In this document: one piece after another, positions 7,097-55,551 of the stretch | Layout: every line of letters begins with the position of its first letter | Numbering within the stretch: the stretch's first letter is position 1 | Assembly: GCA_937872225.1 (NCBI GenBank) | Contig: CALMRZ010000052.1 | Location: forward strand, 62,001 to 126,000 | Reading direction: 5' to 3' | Length of the DNA stretch: 64,000 nt | Origin: an uncultured Spirochaetota bacterium | Lineage (GTDB): Bacteria; Spirochaetota; UBA4802; UBA5550 | The notes under the pieces: generated by a model | The model's input: the letters and a program-made list of their open reading frames with translations, nothing else | Told to the model about the DNA's origin: nothing | The model's database searches: none | Program-made: the position numbers and the translations under genes

Positions 7097-7555
7097 TTAT
7101 TCCGGATTTGCAAGCCGGTATTTCTGAAGCACCGTTTTGATCCGCTGCAGCAACACCTTGCGGTCAATCGGCTTAAGGATAAAATCATACACGCCGAGCT
7201 TGATGAGGTCAGCCATGACCCCCTTGGTTGTCTCCTCGCTGATAAAAACCACCGGCGGGCGGACAGGTTTTTTGGCCAGCTCGTGCATTAAAGCGTAACC
7301 GTCCATTACGGGCATGTCAAGGGTTGTGGTTATCAGGTCAAGTTTCCCTTCGATCTTGGCCATTTTATCGAGGGCTTCCTGGCCGTTGGCGGCAGTGGCA
7401 ACGACCATGTAGCGTTCGGATTCAAAAATCTGAACTATCTGTTTTCGTATAAATTCTTTCCCCTCAACAACCATGACCTTATACGGCCTGCCGCCGGGCT
7501 TGATGCCGTCCGGCGTCTTGGTATTCAAGCTTGGGAATTCACCCCTGCCCTTCAT
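7097..7555 (-). CDS. Response-regulator receiver protein lacking the phospho-acceptor Asp
   Basis: A stand-alone CheY-like receiver of about 152 residues with a 25-residue N-terminal tail. The ATG at 7555 follows GGGAGGG, so I prefer it to the longer frame. The lysine of KP (Lys128) and the Ser of FIS (Ser106) are kept. The acidic pair reads EG (31-32) instead of DD, and the acceptor position, four residues before MPVMDG's proline, is Thr78, with an Asp at 80. Normal phosphorylation is therefore doubtful, and it may act as a constitutive or phosphorylation-independent partner. It is divergent from the GHKL-HDOD gene at 7964 and upstream of the anchored unknown at 5924. Confidence 0.85.
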   Translation of the reverse strand: MKGRGEFPSLNTKTPDGIKPGGRPYKVMVVEGKEFIRKQIVQIFESERYMVVATAANGQEALDKMAKIEGKLDLITTTLDMPVMDGYALMHELAKKPVRPPVVFISEETTKGVMADLIKLGVYDFILKPIDRKVLLQRIKTVLQKYRLANPE

Positions 7556-7963
7556 GTGTCCCTCCCTACAAAATACTGCAAACGCGCACCGCATTATTGC
7601 ACATAATCCGACACCCGTGCCAATAGTACACATATACTGACAAATGACAATAATTTTTGCAACATCTAAAAACAGAAAACTGGATTGTCAAGATGAAAAT
7701 ATCCGCAATTACTGCGCCGGATGACCCACTATCCAAAAAAAACAAACAAAATACTTGATTATTTTCACCACTCTAACGATATAATACTTGAATAATTGTT
7801 TTTGCTTGACTATAGACATAACGGGTTCCGACAGTATCGGCACCGGGCCGATCAGCGATCAGCATATAACAACAGACAAAAGGAAATCCGGATTTTGCGC
7901 CGGAAAAAATGATTCCATCCGGGCGGGACTGTCAATTAACCGGTTTTGTGCAAACCGAACACC
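7556..7963. promoter_or_regulatory. AT-rich divergent region with a candidate promoter for the GHKL-HDOD gene
   Basis: About 400 bases between divergent signalling genes. TTGATT at 7755-7760 and TATAAT at 7780-7785, 19 bases apart, form a possible plus-strand promoter about 180 bases ahead of the GHKL-HDOD start. A 62-codon frame inside (7788-7976) has no good start signal and runs into the next gene, so I do not call it. Confidence 0.4.
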
Positions 7964-9508
7964 ATGGGTCAACTAGAAATCAAAGAGGAAAAATCTGTTT
8001 TGTCCAGCGACGAACAAAAACAATACACAATCCATCCCAATGATTATAAGGCCGCCATCGCCAGCGAGGTCGACTTTTACATCCAGTTTCACACGCTGAC
8101 GCCTGAAACGGAAGGCGCCATCATTAAAAGCATCCACCGGTATCTTGAAAACTACGACCTCACCTATATAAAAAACCAGATCATCAACATTGTAAAAGAG
8201 CTGGTCAACAACGCGATCAAGGCGAACCTGAAAAGGATATTCTTCAAACTCAAGGGCCTTGATATCAACAAGACCGAGGATTACCGCGCGGGGATGGAGA
8301 ACTTCAAGGAGGAGGCCTACGAGGGCACCGAGGACTATCTCGGCAAGCTGGAAACGTCAAACCTGGTGGTGCGGGTCTCCTTCAAAACCACCGATAACTA
8401 TCTCTACATCAACGTCATCAACAACGTCCCGATCCTTGATGCCGAAATATCAAAGATCAACGCGCGGATAAAGAAAGCCTACAAGTACAGGGACATCTCC
8501 GAAGCCTTCGACGAGGTCCTTGACGACTCTGAAGGGGCCGGCCTCGGCCTCATCATGGCCCTGATGATTTTCAAGAACATCGGCATGCCTCCCGACGCGT
8601 TCAAGATCTACCGGAAGAACGACCTCACCATCGCGGCCATTGCCATACCCCAGGACATGGACAAGATCCGCTCCCGGGTCCAGATCGCGGAGGAGATACT
8701 GAAGGAGATAAAGGATATCCCCGCGTTTCCCGAAAACATACTCCACATCCAGAAGCTCTGCGCAAACCCGGACGCGACCATAAAGGAGATCGCCGCCGCC
8801 ATATCGATGGACCCGGGCCTCACGACATCGATCCTCAAGCTGGCCAACTCGGCGGGGTATTTCACCGTCAAGAAAACCGAGACCATCGAGGACGCCGTCA
8901 AGATCATCGGCGTGAAGGGGATCAACACCCTCCTCCTCGCCACCGGCGTTTACAAGGTCCTCGACGCGCGCTACAAACGCTCGGAGTCGGTCTGGAAGGA
9001 TTCATACAAGCGGGCCGCGTACGCGCAGAAGATCGCGATGCAGATGAACAAGATCAAGGCGGGCGAGTTCACCTACCTGGCGGCGCTCCTCTCCGATATC
9101 GGCTACATCGTGATGTTCTCACTGAAATCGCCGATCCTCAAGAAGCTCCAGCACCTCGCGGGGTTCAAGGGAATCGACGATTCGAACCTCCTGGAGGAGA
9201 TAAGCCTGGGGCTGTCCCACAGCACCCTGGGGGGGATGATTTTCAACAAGTGGAAGTTCAACGAGTCGCTGGTGAAGACCATCGAATTCCACCACCGGCC
9301 CCACATGGCGCCGGAAAACCTGAAACAGATCATCTACATCGTCTACCTGGCGGACTGTCTGGTGGAAATCGACAAAAACCGCTTCCGTTACGAATTCATC
9401 GATGAAGACGTCCTCAGTTTTTTCAACCTGACGGACCGAAAATCCTTCGAGATACTGCACAAATCCCTTCACGAATCCTACGAGACCCAGGTCCCGACAA
9501 TTTTTTAG
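7964..9508 (+). CDS. GHKL ATPase-like domain fused to an HDOD domain
   Basis: This signalling protein of about 514 residues has two parts. The N-terminal half is GHKL-like: an N-box ([12 protein letters not shown], about 77-88) and a glycine-rich box (SEGAGLGL) are clear, but the segment that normally reads DxGxG is INNVPIL, with Asn at 153-154 instead of Asp. There is no DHp helix pair, so it is not a normal histidine kinase. The C-terminal half is an HDOD domain ([15 protein letters not shown]... [19 protein letters not shown]), whose HD position reads SDIG. HDOD proteins act as scaffolds in signalling. The ATG at 7964 is preferred to a TTG at 7946. A paralogue lies at 54061-55551. Confidence 0.85.
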
Positions 9509-9643
9509 GCATCGTCGCGCACTCCGAAAAAAAAAGGGGGGGCGCGTAGCTCCGCCGTCACCGTGTCCTCAAATTAATTACTTGACTAAAATCATTTTAC
9601 GGACAAATTTATTGCACGGCCATGTGCCTGCCATAACCACCGC

Positions 9644-9658
9644 GGGGCCCGGGGCCCC
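9644..9658 (+). promoter_or_regulatory. GC-rich hairpin in the glyQ leader
   Basis: GGGGCCC, one base, then GGGCCCC-type pairing gives a seven-pair stem followed by TTT, 10 bases before the glyQ ribosome binding site. It could be an attenuator or affect translation. No T-box consensus is seen around it. Confidence 0.35.
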
Positions 9659-9677
9659 TTTCACCGAGGAGTTTGAA

Positions 9678-10574
9678 ATGTTTTTTCAGGACCTGATCGC
9701 GAAACTTAATGAATACTGGGCCGAAAAAGGATGCCTTATAATCCAGGGATATGACCTCGAAGTCGGGGCCGGCACCTTCAATCCGGCAACCTACCTGCGC
9801 GTCCTGGGCCCGGAGCCGTGGAAAGTCGCCTATGTCGAGCCTTCGCGGCGGCCCACCGACGGCCGCTACGGCGACAATCCAAACCGCCTGCAGCATTACT
9901 ACCAGTACCAGGTCATCCTGAAGCCCTCCCCCGTGGACGTCCAGGACCAGTACCTCGATTCCCTCCGGCACCTGGGCATCAGGCTCGAGGAGCATGATGT
10001 CCGATTCGTCGAGGACGACTGGGAGTCGCCGACCCTGGGGGCCGCCGGCCTCGGATGGGAAGTGTGGCTCGACGGCATGGAGATCACGCAATTCACCTAC
10101 TTCCAGCAGTGCGGCAGCATGGAGCTCTCGCCCATATCGGTCGAGCTGACCTACGGCCTGGAGCGGATATGCATGTACCTGCAGGGGGTCAACCACTTCA
10201 CCGAAATCATGTGGAACGAGAACATCAGGTACGGCGACGTACACCGCCAGAGCGAATTCGAGTTCTCGCACTATAACTTCAACATCGCCGACACCGAGCT
10301 TCACTTCAAGCTCTTCGACCAATACGAGAAGGAATGCCTTGCCATCCTGGACAACCCGAAGCAGAAGATCGTGCTGCCCGCCTATGACTACGTGCTGAAA
10401 TGCTCCCATGTCTTCAACATGCTCGACGCCCGCGGCGCCATCTCGGTGACGGAGCGCGTCGGGTACATCACGCGGGTGCGCAACATCGCGCGGCGCTGCG
10501 CCGAGCAGTACGTGGCGATCCGGGAGGAAATGGGATTCCCGCTACTAACGAAACAGGCGGCCAGGGCCCTTTAA
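9678..10574 (+). CDS. glyQ: Glycyl-tRNA synthetase alpha subunit
   Basis: This is the catalytic alpha subunit of the bacterial alpha2-beta2 glycyl-tRNA synthetase, which charges tRNA-Gly in the cytosol. The protein of about 298 residues matches the usual length and shows the family's conserved runs: [51 protein letters not shown] and the [14 protein letters not shown] segment. I chose the ATG at 9678 because GAGGAG precedes it; a longer frame from 9582 has no such support. The stop overlaps the next start by one base (TAATG), so it is translationally coupled to the phosphoesterase. The beta subunit gene glyS is not next to it or anywhere in the window. Confidence 0.96.
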
Positions 10575-11557
10575 TGAAGGAAGAGTTAGGCTATCTCGAC
10601 GCATTCCTCGCAAAGTATGACAAATTCGTCATTTCGACGCACGAGAGCCCGGACTGGGACGGCCTCGGCGCCGAAATCGCCATGTTCGAGCTCCTGAAAA
10701 ACCTGGGTAAAAAGCCGCTGATCATCAACTCCGATCCGACGCCGGACAGCTTCCAGTTCCTTGACATGGAACATGACATCAACGTGATGAACGGCGGCTT
10801 CGTCCTGCCCGGCGACATCACCGAATACGCCCAGCTGGTGCTGGACACCAATGATTACGACAACATCGGGTCCGCGTACCATGTGTTGAAGGACAAGGTG
10901 CGCGCCTATTTCATCGTGGACCACCATGAGGGCGACGCCGAGAGGGTGGGCTCAAACATAGTCAAGGCCGAGGCCTCGTCGGCCTGCGAGATCATGTACC
11001 ACATCATCATGCATTACGGCAAGCCGATATCCCTCCGGGCGGCCCAGGCCCTCTTCGCGGGTATCGTCTTCGACACCGGGTCCTTCGTCTATCCCAAGAC
11101 GTCGCCGGAAACCTTCCGCATCGCGGCGCACCTGGAGGAGCTGGGGGTCGTCCCCTTCTTCATCCACGAGCAGATATACGAGCAGAACGCCCTCACGAGC
11201 TTCGAGCTGCGGGGCCAGATCCTCTCCACCATGGAGGTGCTGCACGGCGGCAAAATGATCGCCATGAAGCTCACGCCGGAGATGCTGAAGGCGTCGGGCG
11301 CCACCTTCACCGAGGGAGAGCCGGCCATCAACATGCCCCTTACCGTCAAGGGGGTGGTGGCGAGTCTCCTGGTCAAACAGGACGTTGACGGCCCCGTCAA
11401 GGTTAGCATGCGGACGAAGGGCGAGCTTGATGTCGCGAAGATAGCCATGGAAAACGGGGGCGGCGGGCACCGGAACGCTGCCGGGTACAAGTCCAAGCTG
11501 TCCCTTGACGAGACCTACGACCTGGCAATCAAGAGGATGGGCGTTCTCTTCAAATAA
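10574..11557 (+). CDS. DHH/DHHA1 phosphoesterase, NrnA-like
   Basis: This cytosolic protein of about 327 residues belongs to the DHH family. Metal-binding motifs are visible in order: STHESPDWDGLGAE (motif I), LDTNDYDNIG (motif II), VDHHE (DHH, motif III) and DTGSF (motif IV). The C-terminal DHHA1 domain ends with GGGGHRNAAG, which grips the substrate. Relatives are nano-RNases or pAp phosphatases (NrnA) that clear short RNA oligonucleotides and 3'-phosphoadenosine 5'-phosphate. The ATG overlaps the glyQ stop, so the pair is an operon. Which of the two activities dominates cannot be told from sequence. Confidence 0.9.
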   Translation: MKEELGYLDAFLAKYDKFVISTHESPDWDGLGAEIAMFELLKNLGKKPLIINSDPTPDSFQFLDMEHDINVMNGGFVLPGDITEYAQLVLDTNDYDNIGSAYHVLKDKVRAYFIVDHHEGDAERVGSNIVKAEASSACEIMYHIIMHYGKPISLRAAQALFAGIVFDTGSFVYPKTSPETFRIAAHLEELGVVPFFIHEQIYEQNALTSFELRGQILSTMEVLHGGKMIAMKLTPEMLKASGATFTEGEPAINMPLTVKGVVASLLVKQDVDGPVKVSMRTKGELDVAKIAMENGGGGHRNAAGYKSKLSLDETYDLAIKRMGVLFK

Positions 11558-28454: not shown

Positions 28455-28745
28455 ATGAAAATAAAAATAAACCAGACCGGCGACCCGATAAAAATAGGAA
28501 TCGAAGGCAATCTTGAATCTACCACCCTGAAGCCCTTTAACGACAAAGTTGCCAGCATCCCGTCTTTTGATAAGGATGTTGAAATTGACCTTGCCCTGGT
28601 CGATTACATCGATTCATCCGGCATCCGGACACTCCTGACTTTGAAAAAGAAACTCCAGGAGATCAACAAGAATCTTACCATTGTAAACTGCTCTGAAAAC
28701 GTTAAACGTATCCTGCAACTTTCCTCGCTTCAGGGCATACTGTGA
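28455..28745 (+). CDS. STAS-domain anti-anti-sigma factor
   Basis: A 96-residue single-domain STAS protein of the SpoIIAA/RsbV type. The conserved loop that carries the phosphorylated serine is present (VDYIDSSGIRTLLTL). Such proteins bind an anti-sigma kinase when unphosphorylated and release the sigma factor. The PP2C-type phosphatase at 33389-35572 could be its activator, which is an inference from family roles. The gene precedes the PrsW-cNMP gene by 35 bases on the same strand, so the two are probably co-transcribed. Confidence 0.9.
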   Translation: MKIKINQTGDPIKIGIEGNLESTTLKPFNDKVASIPSFDKDVEIDLALVDYIDSSGIRTLLTLKKKLQEINKNLTIVNCSENVKRILQLSSLQGIL

Positions 28746-33377: not shown

Positions 33378-33388
33378 CATTGGGGGCC

Positions 33389-35572
33389 ATGAAACATTAT
33401 TTGATAGTGCCCGTACTGGCGTTCCTGATCAATTTTTCCACCATACCCTATGCCATCGCCCTCAATATCAGGAACCCGGTCAACCGCACATACGTGATGC
33501 TGGCCGCTGCCATCAGCATGTGGGTCTTCTGCAGCGCCGCCTTTCACATCTCCCTTGACGATACGGCCATTGCACCCTTCAGCAAATTTTCATCGATCTT
33601 CTGGTTCAGCACCGGATTCTTTTTCATGAACTTCACCTACGTGTTCCTCAGGCGCCGCCGTGACATCTTCTACTATTTCATCCTTGGCATATCGGCCCTG
33701 ACAGTCCTGATCTCCACCAACACTGACCTCATCGTTAATGGATATTCGCACTACCACTGGGGATGGCGCTTTACCGAGGGGCCGCTGTTCAACGCGGCCA
33801 CGGTCCTGGCGATCATCACGCCCATCATGATTTCGTGGGGCCTGGCGTTCCGCTACCGCAGCAGGACAGAGGACCCGGTACGGCGCAGCCAGCTGACGCC
33901 GCTCCTTTCCGGAACAATCATCGCCCTCCTCTTCTCGGCCGTGAACCAGTTTGTCATACCCCGGCTCCCCGGACTTGAAAATATCGTCAGGTACACCGCA
34001 TCATGGAGCGTGATCCTGAGTCTCTTTGTGTTCTATACCATCATCCGCTACCGCTTCCTGACGCCGGGAATCAACACCATCGCGATGGAACTCTTTTCAT
34101 CTTCCGTTGAAGGCGTTGTCATACTGGACAATACCGGCACGGTGCTGCACATCAACAGGGCCGCCCTCGGCATCCTCAGCATCGACAATGCCGACACCTC
34201 ATCACTCCGCATGGAAACCCTGATCGATGGATACCGCGGTGACGCCGTGTACAGCAATTACCAGACGACCGCCGGGCCCAGGGAAAAGCGGACGGTGCTG
34301 CTCAGCCAGTCCGATATCCGTTCCGGGGTCATCACGACGGGAAAAATTCTCATCATCAACGACATCACGGCCATGGCCCGCATGAACGAAGCGCTGCGCG
34401 AATCGAACGAGCTCTTCGGGCTCATCGCCAACAACGTCACCGACGTCATCTGGATCTATGACCTGGCCACAGCCAAATTCAGCTACGTGAGCCCGTCCTG
34501 TACGGCGAGCACCGGGTGGACCCCGGAAGAGTATACCCGCCTTTCACTCCCGGACATACTGGATGAAGAGGATGTGAACCAGGTAACAAGGCTGCTGACC
34601 AGCGAAATCGACCGCGATGGAGTGCGCTACCCGGGCAGGTCACGGTCCCTCACGCTGAAGGAACGCACCAAGAACGGCGGATTGGTCCATATCGAGGTAA
34701 AGGCCTCCTTTATCAGGGATACCTCCGGCAAACCGACGGCGGTACTGGGGGTGACCAGGGACATTACCGAGTTCAAGCGCCTCGAGCGGGAGCTCCGTTC
34801 AAGCCTGGAAGCATTAAAAGAGCGTAATGACACGATCGAAAACGATCTCAAAACGGCCCAGATAATCCAGCGGGCGCTGCTTCCCGCCGGGCCCCCGCGC
34901 TGCGATCGCCTGGCCATTGATTTCCGCTACCTTCCGCTGGAGGCTGTAGGCGGCGATTTCTTCAATATTCTGCCCCTGTCTGACGGGGGCCTCTCCATAT
35001 TCCTGAGCGATGTGACAGGTCATGGCATATCCGCGGCCCTGTTCCTCTCTTTGCTTAAAACAATCAGCAGCGCGCACCTGCGCAGGCACGCGTACCAGCC
35101 GTCCGACTTCCTTGCCTCGGTCAACGCCGATCTTTTCGAGCATATGCATTCTTGTTTTTTATCGGCCGTATACGGCATCTTCAAGGTCAACAAAGGAAAA
35201 AAGGCCGTGAATCTGGCGGTCGCATGCGGCGGGCATCCGCCCCCCATCGCGCACTATGCGGGAGCGGAATCGGCAAACTACCTTGACATCCGGGGCGCCA
35301 TGATCGGGGTGGCAAGCGATAATTCCTTCCCTCAGCTTGAAATGGACCTCAACCCGGGGGACAGGATGTTTTTTTATACCGACGGCCTTCCGGAAATAAT
35401 AGACGAACAGCGCAACTACCTGGGCTACGACCGGTTCCTTGACATAGTGGGCCGCACCAGGGTCCTGCCCCTCGGCGAAGCCCTGGACACCATCATGGCC
35501 GCGATCGACCATTTTCGCGGTTCCGGGAAGATCACCGACGACATGGTCATCATAGGCGTCGACGTGCTCTGA
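33389..35572 (+). CDS. Membrane PAS sensor with PP2C (SpoIIE-type) phosphatase domain
   Basis: This protein of about 727 residues senses a signal and dephosphorylates a protein. Residues 1-225 are seven membrane helices of the histidine-kinase 7TM type. Two PAS-like regions follow; the second (SNELFGLIANNVTDVIWIYD) is clear. A short coiled coil precedes the PP2C domain, whose metal-binding blocks are AVGGDFFN, LSDVTGHGISAAL and DDMVIIGV at the end. The likely target is a STAS anti-anti-sigma factor such as that at 28455. The ATG at 33389 is chosen over an upstream TTG. The neighbour upstream is the acyl-CoA synthetase, 11 bases away. Confidence 0.9.
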   Translation: MKHYLIVPVLAFLINFSTIPYAIALNIRNPVNRTYVMLAAAISMWVFCSAAFHISLDDTAIAPFSKFSSIFWFSTGFFFMNFTYVFLRRRRDIFYYFILGISALTVLISTNTDLIVNGYSHYHWGWRFTEGPLFNAATVLAIITPIMISWGLAFRYRSRTEDPVRRSQLTPLLSGTIIALLFSAVNQFVIPRLPGLENIVRYTASWSVILSLFVFYTIIRYRFLTPGINTIAMELFSSSVEGVVILDNTGTVLHINRAALGILSIDNADTSSLRMETLIDGYRGDAVYSNYQTTAGPREKRTVLLSQSDIRSGVITTGKILIINDITAMARMNEALRESNELFGLIANNVTDVIWIYDLATAKFSYVSPSCTASTGWTPEEYTRLSLPDILDEEDVNQVTRLLTSEIDRDGVRYPGRSRSLTLKERTKNGGLVHIEVKASFIRDTSGKPTAVLGVTRDITEFKRLERELRSSLEALKERNDTIENDLKTAQIIQRALLPAGPPRCDRLAIDFRYLPLEAVGGDFFNILPLSDGGLSIFLSDVTGHGISAALFLSLLKTISSAHLRRHAYQPSDFLASVNADLFEHMHSCFLSAVYGIFKVNKGKKAVNLAVACGGHPPPIAHYAGAESANYLDIRGAMIGVASDNSFPQLEMDLNPGDRMFFYTDGLPEIIDEQRNYLGYDRFLDIVGRTRVLPLGEALDTIMAAIDHFRGSGKITDDMVIIGVDVL

Positions 35573-43530: not shown

Positions 43531-43782
43531 TCAAACTACCGATAACTGGCAGGTTATGCCTGCCCGAGCAAGCTGACGCTGGAGAGTGAAACCCAGGCAT
43601 CCGGCCTCGTAACAGGACTTGATGCTTCCGTCCCGACCTAATCTCTCAAAAATAGGCATGATCTTTTCCATGCTATTGGGAATCCGTTTCTCAAACAGAG
43701 GCTCTTCCTCCCAATTCCTAAAAACAGATAATTCGACAGTTTCCTTGTGGACATCCATCCCTACATGATATGCAGTTTCCAT
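43531..43782 (-). pseudogene. Truncated IS110-family transposase (N-terminal part)
   Basis: About 83 residues remain of a DEDD transposase. The frame starts METAYHVGMDVHKETVELSV, with the first catalytic Asp (Asp10), and continues to CYEAGCLGFTLQRQLARAGI with the Glu of the second motif. A full IS110 transposase is over 300 residues; the rest of the RuvC-like part and the whole Tnp domain with its serine are missing. The protein sequence ends where a CCGATAACT repeat (43539-43550) takes over, so the last codons come from the repeat. The ATG at 43782 is the normal family start. The copy cannot be active. Confidence 0.85.
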
Positions 43783-43784
43783 TT

Positions 43785-43951
43785 GTGACCCTCTGGCAAA
43801 GATTTTTGCGTTACTTGTATGCGGTAACTCCTGCCATTGGCAGGTAAATCCACGAAATTGCAAGCAGAGGGTCACCTCATATTGTCTATCGCATCCCTAC
43901 CTGCCGACAGGGGTCAGATTCCCGATTATCCCGGCATCCTGCTGTAATCGG
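43785..43951 (-). ncRNA. Structured leader of the IS110 remnant, candidate decayed bridge RNA
   Basis: Directly upstream of the transposase start, GTGACCCTCTG (43785-43795) pairs with CAGAGGGTCAC (43865-43875), an 11-pair stem. Inside it are GTTAC...GTAAC and CCTGCCA-T-TGGCAGG hairpins; beyond it is CCGATTA...TAATCGG (43922-43928 with 43945-43951). IS110 elements carry a structured bridge RNA in this position. No RNA evidence is available, and the outer end of the element is not defined. Confidence 0.4.
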
Positions 43952-54060: not shown

Positions 54061-55551
54061 TTACAATAGTTTCTGCTGCATGGCAAAACGCTTCTGGAGG
54101 CGGTGCAGCAGATGGTCAAAATCGGCCCGCGACTCGACGCCGAACTTTTTCAGCACCTCGTCCTCGATGTAATGGGGATCCATGAACTTCTCCTCCACGT
54201 TGCACAGCTGGTTAGCCAGGTACACGATCATGGTCATCTCCCGGTTGCGTATCCCGGGGCTGAGCGGCGCGTGGTGATACCGTATCGTCTCGACAAGGTC
54301 CTCGTGAAAATTCCATTTCTCGGCGATAAGACCCCCGATTGTCGAGTGGCTGATACCGATGTATATTTCCTCCAGAATGGCGGTGGTCCTGATTTTCCGG
54401 TTCCTGACCATCTCCGCTATCTGGCCCGCCAGCCCGGCATCGGTCGAAAGGAGCACGATTTTCCCGATATCGTGCAGGAGCGCCGCGACGAAAACATCGT
54501 CCGCAATCGCGCCGTGTCCTTTTTCAATCGCTATCTGACGCGCGTAGTACGCGGTCCTGCTGCAGTGCTCCCACACCTGCTCGAACTTCCGGTACCGCTT
54601 TTCCATTATTTCCCGCGAAGCCGACGCGATCAGAAGTGACTCGAGGTTTTTCAGACCGATAACCATGACGGCTTCGTGAATCTTGTTGATCCGCCTGCCG
54701 GTTATGAAGCCCGCCGAATTGGACAGCTTGAGGAGATCGGCGGCAAGGGACGGGTCAATGGATATCCTTTCCGAAATGGCATCGATGGTCGTCTCCGGGT
54801 TGTTGCAGAGGGCCCGCAGTTCCAGGATGTTCTCGGGAAAGGTCGGGAGGGAACTGACATCTTCAAGGATGCGCTTCCCGATCTCCGAGGTGATCTCAGA
54901 GGCCTTCAGCTCGGGCGGGATTGTGATGGTTATCCTCGCAGCATCCCCTTCCGGGCTTATGGCGAAGCAGCCGGAATCGATGCCGGCGTTCTTCAGCAGC
55001 ATGATCGACAGGATCACTCCCAGTCCCGCCCCCTCGGACGCATCGTACATGTTCTCGTAGGCATCGGCAAAATTTCCGCCTTCGGCCGCCTTGGCGGCCC
55101 GGTTCTTCAGCCGTTCCAGCTCGGCAGGGACGATACGGGCGTTGTTGCTCACCTCTATCATGATCCCGCCGCCTGCTTTCCGGAGCTTCAGCATGATGCG
55201 GTAGGGGCTCGCCAGGAGCTTGTCCTTCAGCACCTCGGGATGGTAGACGACGTTTTTGAATTTCGCCATCCCCTTCCGGTAATCATTGTCATCATTGATG
55301 TCCAGGTTCTTTTCCCTGAACCAGACGCGCTTCATGTTCGCCTTCACCGCGTTCTGGACCAGCTCGCGGATTATGGACTCAAGAGTGTCGTAGAGATACG
55401 CCTTGTCCATGCGCGCGAGTACCTTGGCCAGCAGGGAATTGATGTCGACCTCAATTGCCCGCGTCAAGTATTGAAAGCTGATGTAGACCTCTTCCCCGCG
55501 GTCGAACTGTTTTGCCAGGTCTGGCGAATCAAACATCGTGAGCACCCGCAT
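54061..55551 (-). CDS. GHKL ATPase-like domain fused to an HDOD domain (paralogue)
   Basis: A 496-residue paralogue of the protein at 7964. The N-box (IIRELVQNAVKANMKRV, 60-76) and the glycine box (SEGAGLGV, 172-179) are present, and the DxGxG position again reads VSNNARI, with Asn at 136-137. The HDOD part (LPTFPENILELRALCNNPET onward) keeps LLHDIGK, unlike the first copy's SDIG, and ends in YHH. No DHp or receiver is attached. The ATG at 55551 lacks a good ribosome binding site; an ATG five codons in is possible. The DUF115 gene follows after 11 bases. Confidence 0.86.
   Translation of the reverse strand: MRVLTMFDSPDLAKQFDRGEEVYISFQYLTRAIEVDINSLLAKVLARMDKAYLYDTLESIIRELVQNAVKANMKRVWFREKNLDINDDNDYRKGMAKFKNVVYHPEVLKDKLLASPYRIMLKLRKAGGGIMIEVSNNARIVPAELERLKNRAAKAAEGGNFADAYENMYDASEGAGLGVILSIMLLKNAGIDSGCFAISPEGDAARITITIPPELKASEITSEIGKRILEDVSSLPTFPENILELRALCNNPETTIDAISERISIDPSLAADLLKLSNSAGFITGRRINKIHEAVMVIGLKNLESLLIASASREIMEKRYRKFEQVWEHCSRTAYYARQIAIEKGHGAIADDVFVAALLHDIGKIVLLSTDAGLAGQIAEMVRNRKIRTTAILEEIYIGISHSTIGGLIAEKWNFHEDLVETIRYHHAPLSPGIRNREMTMIVYLANQLCNVEEKFMDPHYIEDEVLKKFGVESRADFDHLLHRLQKRFAMQQKLL

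What the first reader, a model, noticed from the sequence alone, without database searches (positions are those of the whole stretch)
7964..9508. GHKL-HDOD fusion with Asn in place of the ATP-contacting Asp
Both paralogues (here and at 54061-55551) join an N-box and a GxGLG box to an HDOD domain, with no DHp or receiver. In both, the DxGxG motif is replaced by a pair of Asn residues, which suggests a shared, selected change and not decay. They may bind a nucleotide without kinase activity and pass the state to HDOD.
Basis: partly seen in the sequence, partly recalled or inferred. Interest (0 to 1): 0.6.

Follow-up and report, generated by a model that had tools for sequence, protein, structure and literature searches.

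The report
Spirochaete GHKL-HDOD signalling protein family
Spirochaete bacteria, including a genome that looks like the syphilis agent's, carry an unstudied family of signalling proteins that joins an ATP-type binding domain to an HDOD output domain; one contact residue that is normally Asp is Asn in every member checked, so the change is a fixed family trait and not decay.

Summary
Both genes encode a GHKL domain fused to HDOD, with no DHp or receiver. The genome has five such paralogues. The N-terminal domain matches 258 of 393 Spirochaetota genomes. In 141 distinct members (116 of HDOD size, 25 short), the G1 Asp position is Asn in 116/116 and 24/24 alignable cases; none has DxGxG. The first Asn is the fixed one; the second varies (N/P/S/D). 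Both G1 glycines are lost too.
The change is selected, but "no kinase activity" does not follow. The Glu, Asn, Lys and GxGLG residues that bind Mg2+ and phosphate and do catalysis are also invariant or nearly so. By predicted structure the domain is closest to the Ser/Thr kinases RsbW, SpoIIAB and SiaB. SiaB, a shown kinase, also lacks the G1 Asp. Asn in place of this Asp is known in VanS (weak ATP binding), ThkA (Asn-adenine bond) and BA2291 (GTP-dependent).
The two paralogues differ in output. P0002's HDOD keeps the HD metal residues; P0001's clade has lost them.
Best reading: an uncharacterised, spirochaete-wide RsbW/SiaB-like nucleotide-binding module that controls an HDOD domain, probably still a kinase. 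Ligand and partner unknown. New variant of a known kind.

The parts
7964..9508 (+). GHKL-HDOD protein P0001 (514 aa)
   Evidence: ORF and translation; Pfam HDOD E 1.2e-46; AF2 pLDDT 83, pTM 0.80
8063..8659 (+). N-terminal GHKL (Bergerat) domain, residues 34-232
   Evidence: Fold matches to RsbW, SpoIIAB, SiaB over this range
8198..8236 (+). N-box, residues 79-91 (E79, N83, K86)
   Evidence: E79, N83, K86 in 116/116 HDOD-size members
8420..8425 (+). G1-box N153-N154, in place of D and the next residue of DxGxG
   Evidence: Translation; N153 116/116
8522..8548 (+). ATP-lid end and G2 box, residues 187-195 (DDSEGAGLG)
   Evidence: D187, E190, G193 115/116, G195 116/116
8717..9301 (+). HDOD domain, residues 252-446, HD centre degraded (D346, S377, Y381)
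   Evidence: Pfam; residue signature DSDYHHHD
54061..55551 (-). GHKL-HDOD paralogue P0002 (496 aa); GHKL to about residue 216
   Evidence: ORF and translation; Pfam HDOD E 7.4e-53
55141..55146 (-). G1-box N136-N137 of P0002
   Evidence: Translation; alignment
54265..54849 (-). HDOD domain of P0002, residues 235-429, HD residues intact (HHDKHHHN)
   Evidence: Pfam; residue signature
7097..7633 (-). divergent CheY-like response regulator, conserved neighbour of P0001
   Evidence: Pfam Response_reg E 1.5e-23; same family in 14 of the other loci
9582..10574 (+). glyQ (glycyl-tRNA synthetase alpha), conserved downstream neighbour
   Evidence: Pfam tRNA-synt_2e E 3.9e-146; conserved synteny
10574..11557 (+). 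DHH/DHHA1 phosphoesterase (NrnA-like), conserved downstream neighbour
   Evidence: Pfam DHH and DHHA1; same family at 22 other loci; start read at 10574

Best explanation
P0001 and P0002 belong to a spirochaete-wide family of soluble signalling proteins. The N-terminal domain is a GHKL module of the RsbW/SpoIIAB/SiaB type, not a histidine-kinase CA domain that has lost its DHp. It most likely binds a Mg-nucleoside triphosphate through N83, K86 and the GxGLG lid, with Asn153 reading the base instead of Asp, and it probably keeps the Glu-dependent (E79) phosphotransfer or hydrolysis of that group. Nucleotide state, or the phosphorylation state of a partner (for example a STAS-type protein), would then set the conformation of the fused HDOD domain: an output that may keep a working metal-dependent HD centre in the P0002 and Treponema types and is a binding-only module in the P0001 clade. 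Shown here: architecture, fold class (predicted), fixed Asn, retention of the motif residues, split in HD residues. Inferred: nucleotide binding, phosphotransfer, coupling to HDOD, identity of the partner.
For: Asn153 116/116, with E79, N83, K86 116/116 and the G2 box 113-116/116. Predicted fold: RsbW 6m37 Z 11.2 over 114 aa, SiaB 6kko Z 11.1 over 152 aa, SpoIIAB 1th8 Z 11.1 over 129 aa, above histidine-kinase CA domains at Z about 8. SiaB shows kinase activity on SiaC T68 and has a predicted catalytic Glu61 (PMC7647112), yet reads SAGNLV at G1 with no Asp. A DUF6272-like spirochaete group with invariant V-x-N at G1 aligns to this family at hhalign probability 95. Asn at this position occurs in VanS, ThkA and a GTP-dependent kinase (PMC10017428). 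The genome is rich in possible partners: 40 STAS and 48 SpoIIE phosphatase matches. Short relatives without HDOD share the same motifs (hhalign probability 100).
Against: No nucleotide, substrate or partner was shown. Both G1 glycines are gone, which may weaken binding. No gene neighbour is shared by all subfamilies, and no STAS or PP2C gene adjoins P0001 or P0002. Direct profile matches are weak for SiaB proper (probability 57) and absent for the genome's own RsbW-like set, so kinship rests on the predicted fold and on the DUF6272-like group. The role of E79 as base is by analogy.
Confidence: 0.45

Rival explanations
1. One reading: the domain is a pseudokinase that binds a nucleotide without chemistry and passes its bound state to HDOD.
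For: Loss of the G1 Asp and of both glycines in all members; VanS with Asn binds ATP only in the millimolar range; no phosphoacceptor His domain in the protein.
Against: The candidate catalytic Glu is invariant 116/116, which binding alone would not require; SiaB lacks this Asp and is an active kinase.
Confidence: 0.28
2. The Asn is a base-specificity change: the domain prefers a guanine nucleotide (GTP, GDP or a guanine signal) because Asn can donate a hydrogen bond to O6, making the protein a GTP-level sensor coupled to HDOD.
For: A histidine kinase with the same substitution is GTP-dependent (BA2291, cited in PMC10017428); the substitution is fixed while phosphate-side residues are kept.
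Against: VanS has the same Asn and prefers ATP over GTP; ThkA's Asn bonds adenine. Nothing here tests base preference.
Confidence: 0.13
3. The domain is a protein-binding scaffold (RsbW-like partner binding) and no longer uses nucleotide.
For: G1 glycines lost; no curated GHKL model reaches its cut-off.
Against: N-box Asn and Lys and the G2 glycines are essentially invariant across a phylum, unlike a decayed pocket.
Confidence: 0.1

Closest known systems
SiaB (DUF6272, PF19788) of Pseudomonas aeruginosa, Thr kinase of SiaC
   Same: GHKL fold (Z 11.1 over 152 aa, the longest alignment among the top matches but one); Glu and Asn of the N-box; G1 without Asp; GAGLGL lid
   Different: Gly-Asn, not Asn-Asn, at G1; no HDOD; no PF19788 match in this genome and profile similarity is weak
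RsbW / SpoIIAB anti-sigma factor kinases
   Same: Fold (Z 10.4-11.2), Glu and Asn of the N-box, no DHp
   Different: They keep DxGxG, as do 9 of the 10 RsbW-type (PF13581) proteins checked in this genome; stand-alone and shorter; family here has about 65 residues between N-box and G1
Histidine kinases with Asn in the G1 box (VanS, ThkA, BA2291)
   Same: Asp to Asn at the adenine-contact position (PMC10017428)
   Different: They have a DHp domain with a phosphoacceptor His; no HDOD
HDOD proteins (SadB, 3m1t, 3hc1, GsmR)
   Same: C-terminal HDOD fold (3m1t Z 20.9, SadB Z 20.7)
   Different: Other N-terminal domains (YbaK-like in SadB); no GHKL-HDOD paper found

Membership tests
GHKL (Bergerat fold) ATP-binding superfamily | Bergerat fold | tested here: met
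   AF2 model pLDDT 85; RsbW, SpoIIAB, SiaB at Z about 11, histidine-kinase CA domains at about 8
GHKL (Bergerat fold) ATP-binding superfamily | N-box with E and Mg-binding N | tested here: met
   E79 and N83 116/116
GHKL (Bergerat fold) ATP-binding superfamily | G1 box DxGxG | tested here: not met
   Asn at the Asp position 116/116; both glycines replaced. Known kinases also deviate here
GHKL (Bergerat fold) ATP-binding superfamily | G2 box GxGLG | tested here: met
   G193 115/116, L194 113/116, G195 116/116
GHKL (Bergerat fold) ATP-binding superfamily | Binds nucleotide | not testable with these tools
   Needs purified protein
Histidine kinase | DHp domain with phosphoacceptor His | tested here: not met
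   No DHp match in Pfam; the GHKL domain starts near residue 34 with no His-bearing helical pair before it
DUF6272 (SiaB) | Match to PF19788 above cut-off | tested here: not met
   No match to PF19788 in this genome at E <= 0.001 (the controls did not ring either), though the same search found it in 39 other Spirochaetota genomes
DUF6272 (SiaB) | Kinase acting on a SiaC-type partner | not testable with these tools
   No SiaC (PF09345) found in this genome, but the control was silent too
HDOD domain (PF08668) | Match above curated cut-off | tested here: met
   159 and 179 bits against 22.9
Catalytic HD phosphohydrolase | H...HD...H...H metal residues | tested here: inconclusive
   Pattern HHDKHHHN in P0002 and in 40 of 74 sequences in all; lost in P0001 (DSDYHHHD) and its clade. 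Activity not tested

The most novel reading that the evidence does not exclude
A phylum-wide class of spirochaete sensors in which a GHKL domain with changed base recognition (possibly guanine) directly gates a metal-dependent HD-type phosphohydrolase in the same chain, a link between nucleotide state and second-messenger or phosphate chemistry kept even in the 1.1 Mb T. pallidum-like genome (where, however, the HD residues are degraded).
Probability: 0.12. Interest if true: 0.75.

Novelty: new variant of a known kind. Interest (0 to 1): 0.45.

Why it matters
The family is present in about two thirds of the spirochaete genomes sampled, with several copies in some lineages (five HDOD fusions in this one), and one copy remains in a 1.1 Mb T. 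pallidum-like genome, yet no functional study was found. It gives a natural set of over 100 proteins in which the adenine-contact Asp is uniformly Asn, so it can test what that residue sets: affinity, base choice or stability. It also offers a case where the state of a GHKL domain may be passed straight to an HDOD domain, whose mechanism is not established.

Tried and rejected
Chance or decay of the motif: rejected by fixation in 116 HDOD-size members and use of both Asn codons. Histidine kinase that lost its DHp: disfavoured because the fold ranks with RsbW, SpoIIAB and SiaB, and the N-box is E-x-x-x-N. Direct SiaB membership: not supported. SiaC partner in this genome: not found, but controls were silent, so absence is not shown. 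A survey outside Spirochaetota: the collection's one scan returned only spirochaete-type records among its best 80 (one titled only 'uncultured bacterium'), plasmid records gave no match to the N-terminal domain and only partial, mostly HDOD-side matches to the full protein, and the genome search could not be centred elsewhere, so restriction to spirochaetes is not proven. A solved structure related to the N-domain by sequence: none. The paper on the GTP-dependent kinase BA2291 was not held.

Full report
What is there. The ORFs at 7964-9508 (+, P0001, 514 aa) and 54061-55551 (-, P0002, 496 aa) are real and 34% identical. Both end in an HDOD domain (Pfam E 1.2e-46 and 7.4e-53). The AlphaFold2 models (pLDDT 83 full length, 85 for the domain alone) match RsbW (6m37, Z 11.2, 114 aa), SiaB (6kko, Z 11.1, 152 aa) and SpoIIAB (1th8, Z 11.1, 129 aa) ahead of histidine-kinase CA domains at Z about 8; the C-terminal half matches HDOD structures (3m1t Z 20.9; SadB Z 20.7). 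No DHp or receiver is present in the models or the Pfam scan.

The Asn pair. In P0001 the G1 strand ends V-I-N-N-V-P-I (N153, N154), in P0002 V-S-N-N-A-R-I. The genome carries five GHKL-HDOD paralogues, all with NN, and further shorter relatives without HDOD. A profile of the N-terminal domain hits 258 of 393 Spirochaetota genomes. Of 141 distinct members collected, the Asp position is Asn in 116 of 116 HDOD-size proteins and in 24 of 24 short ones that align there (three distant short members, two of them from Brachyspira-like genomes, are misplaced by the aligner, but by eye read VINNSPL, IINDAPL and VTNTAPI; one, L145, did not align there and by eye reads VINDAPI). The second Asn varies (N 108, P 5, S 2, D 1). 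Both codons AAC and AAT are used at both sites. Both glycines of DxGxG are also lost (position 155 V/S/T/A/I, position 157 mostly I). As an internal control, nine of ten RsbW-type (PF13581) proteins checked in the same genome keep DxGxG.

Is it dead? The residues that matter for phosphate and chemistry are kept as strictly as the Asn, or nearly so: E79, N83 and K86 in 116/116, G195 in 116/116, G193 in 115/116, D187 and E190 in 115/116. N83 corresponds to the Mg-coordinating Asn of the N-box and K86 to a basic residue near the end of that helix of the kind that contacts phosphates (roles as described for CA domains in PMC10017428). E79 sits where SiaB has its predicted catalytic Glu61 (PMC7647112); that equivalence is by motif and fold, not by test. 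SiaB phosphorylates SiaC at T68 in vitro and its PDB sequence reads V-S-A-G-N-L-V at G1, without Asp. Kinases with Asn at this position are on record: VanSA and VanSC (millimolar ATP affinity, not improved by GTP), ThkA (Asn-adenine hydrogen bond) and a GTP-dependent sporulation kinase (PMC10017428; the original BA2291 paper was not available). So 'Asn, hence no kinase' does not follow, and a changed base reading or weakened affinity is as likely.

Relatives. A group of spirochaete proteins that weakly match DUF6272 has an invariant V-x-N-type Asn at G1 and E-L-x-E-N in the N-box and aligns to this family with hhalign probability 95; SiaB proper gives 57, the genome's RsbW-like set none; the short NN proteins give 100. 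The substitution thus marks a wider branch of SiaB/RsbW-like GHKL proteins, and HDOD fusion is one of its architectures.

The two paralogues differ in output. HD-superfamily metal residues are complete (signature HHDKHHHN) in P0002 and in 40 of 74 full-length sequences in all, but lost in P0001 (DSDYHHHD) and its clade, while the GHKL residues stay fixed in both. In a 1.1 Mb genome whose match position fits TP0073 of T. pallidum the HD signature is degraded (QHNEHHHN). HDOD is therefore more likely a conformational or binding output in P0001 and may be catalytic in P0002. Earlier work found no c-di-GMP hydrolysis by an HDOD domain with HD residues and only weak bis-pNPP activity (PMC4114195), and SadB binds c-di-GMP (PMC6543031).

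Context. P0001 orthologues keep a divergent CheY-like regulator upstream and glyQ plus a DHH/DHHA1 protein downstream at many loci. Other subfamilies have other neighbours, so no universal partner gene is indicated. The genome has 48 SpoIIE-type phosphatase and 40 STAS matches, a large partner-switching repertoire in which an RsbW/SiaB-like module could work; this is circumstantial. Library searches found no paper on a GHKL-HDOD protein and only listings of TP0073; subscription journals are mostly not covered.

Verdict. Observation confirmed and strengthened; interpretation partly supported. This is an uncharacterised spirochaete family and a new variant of known kinds (RsbW/SiaB-like GHKL, HDOD). 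Its unusual Asn is real and fixed but has precedents.

Noticed in passing
whole genome G000: 48 SpoIIE/RsbU-type phosphatase matches, 40 STAS matches and 40 HATPase_c_2 matches in 4.69 Mb: a strongly expanded partner-switching repertoire.
   Followed up: partly
window 7097-11557: Conserved block in relatives: CheY-like regulator, GHKL-HDOD, glyQ, DHH/DHHA1 phosphoesterase; why a glycyl-tRNA synthetase gene sits there is unexplained.
   Followed up: partly
L043 5950-7973 and L037, L046, L048, L052-L055: Stand-alone NN-GHKL genes in termite-gut and related Treponema are directly followed by a cyclic-nucleotide-binding protein (PF00027) at all eight loci.
   Followed up: partly
window 28455-28742 and 33380-35569: A STAS-domain ORF followed by a large membrane protein, and an ORF ending in a SpoIIE domain.
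   Followed up: no
window 43534-43875: Short ORF that looks like a truncated transposase (METAYHVGMDVHKETVELSVF), judged by eye only.
   Followed up: no
L078 1389-2882: GHKL and HDOD halves lie in two adjacent same-strand ORFs split by a stop near PQFP: a break or sequencing error in a metagenome contig.
   Followed up: no
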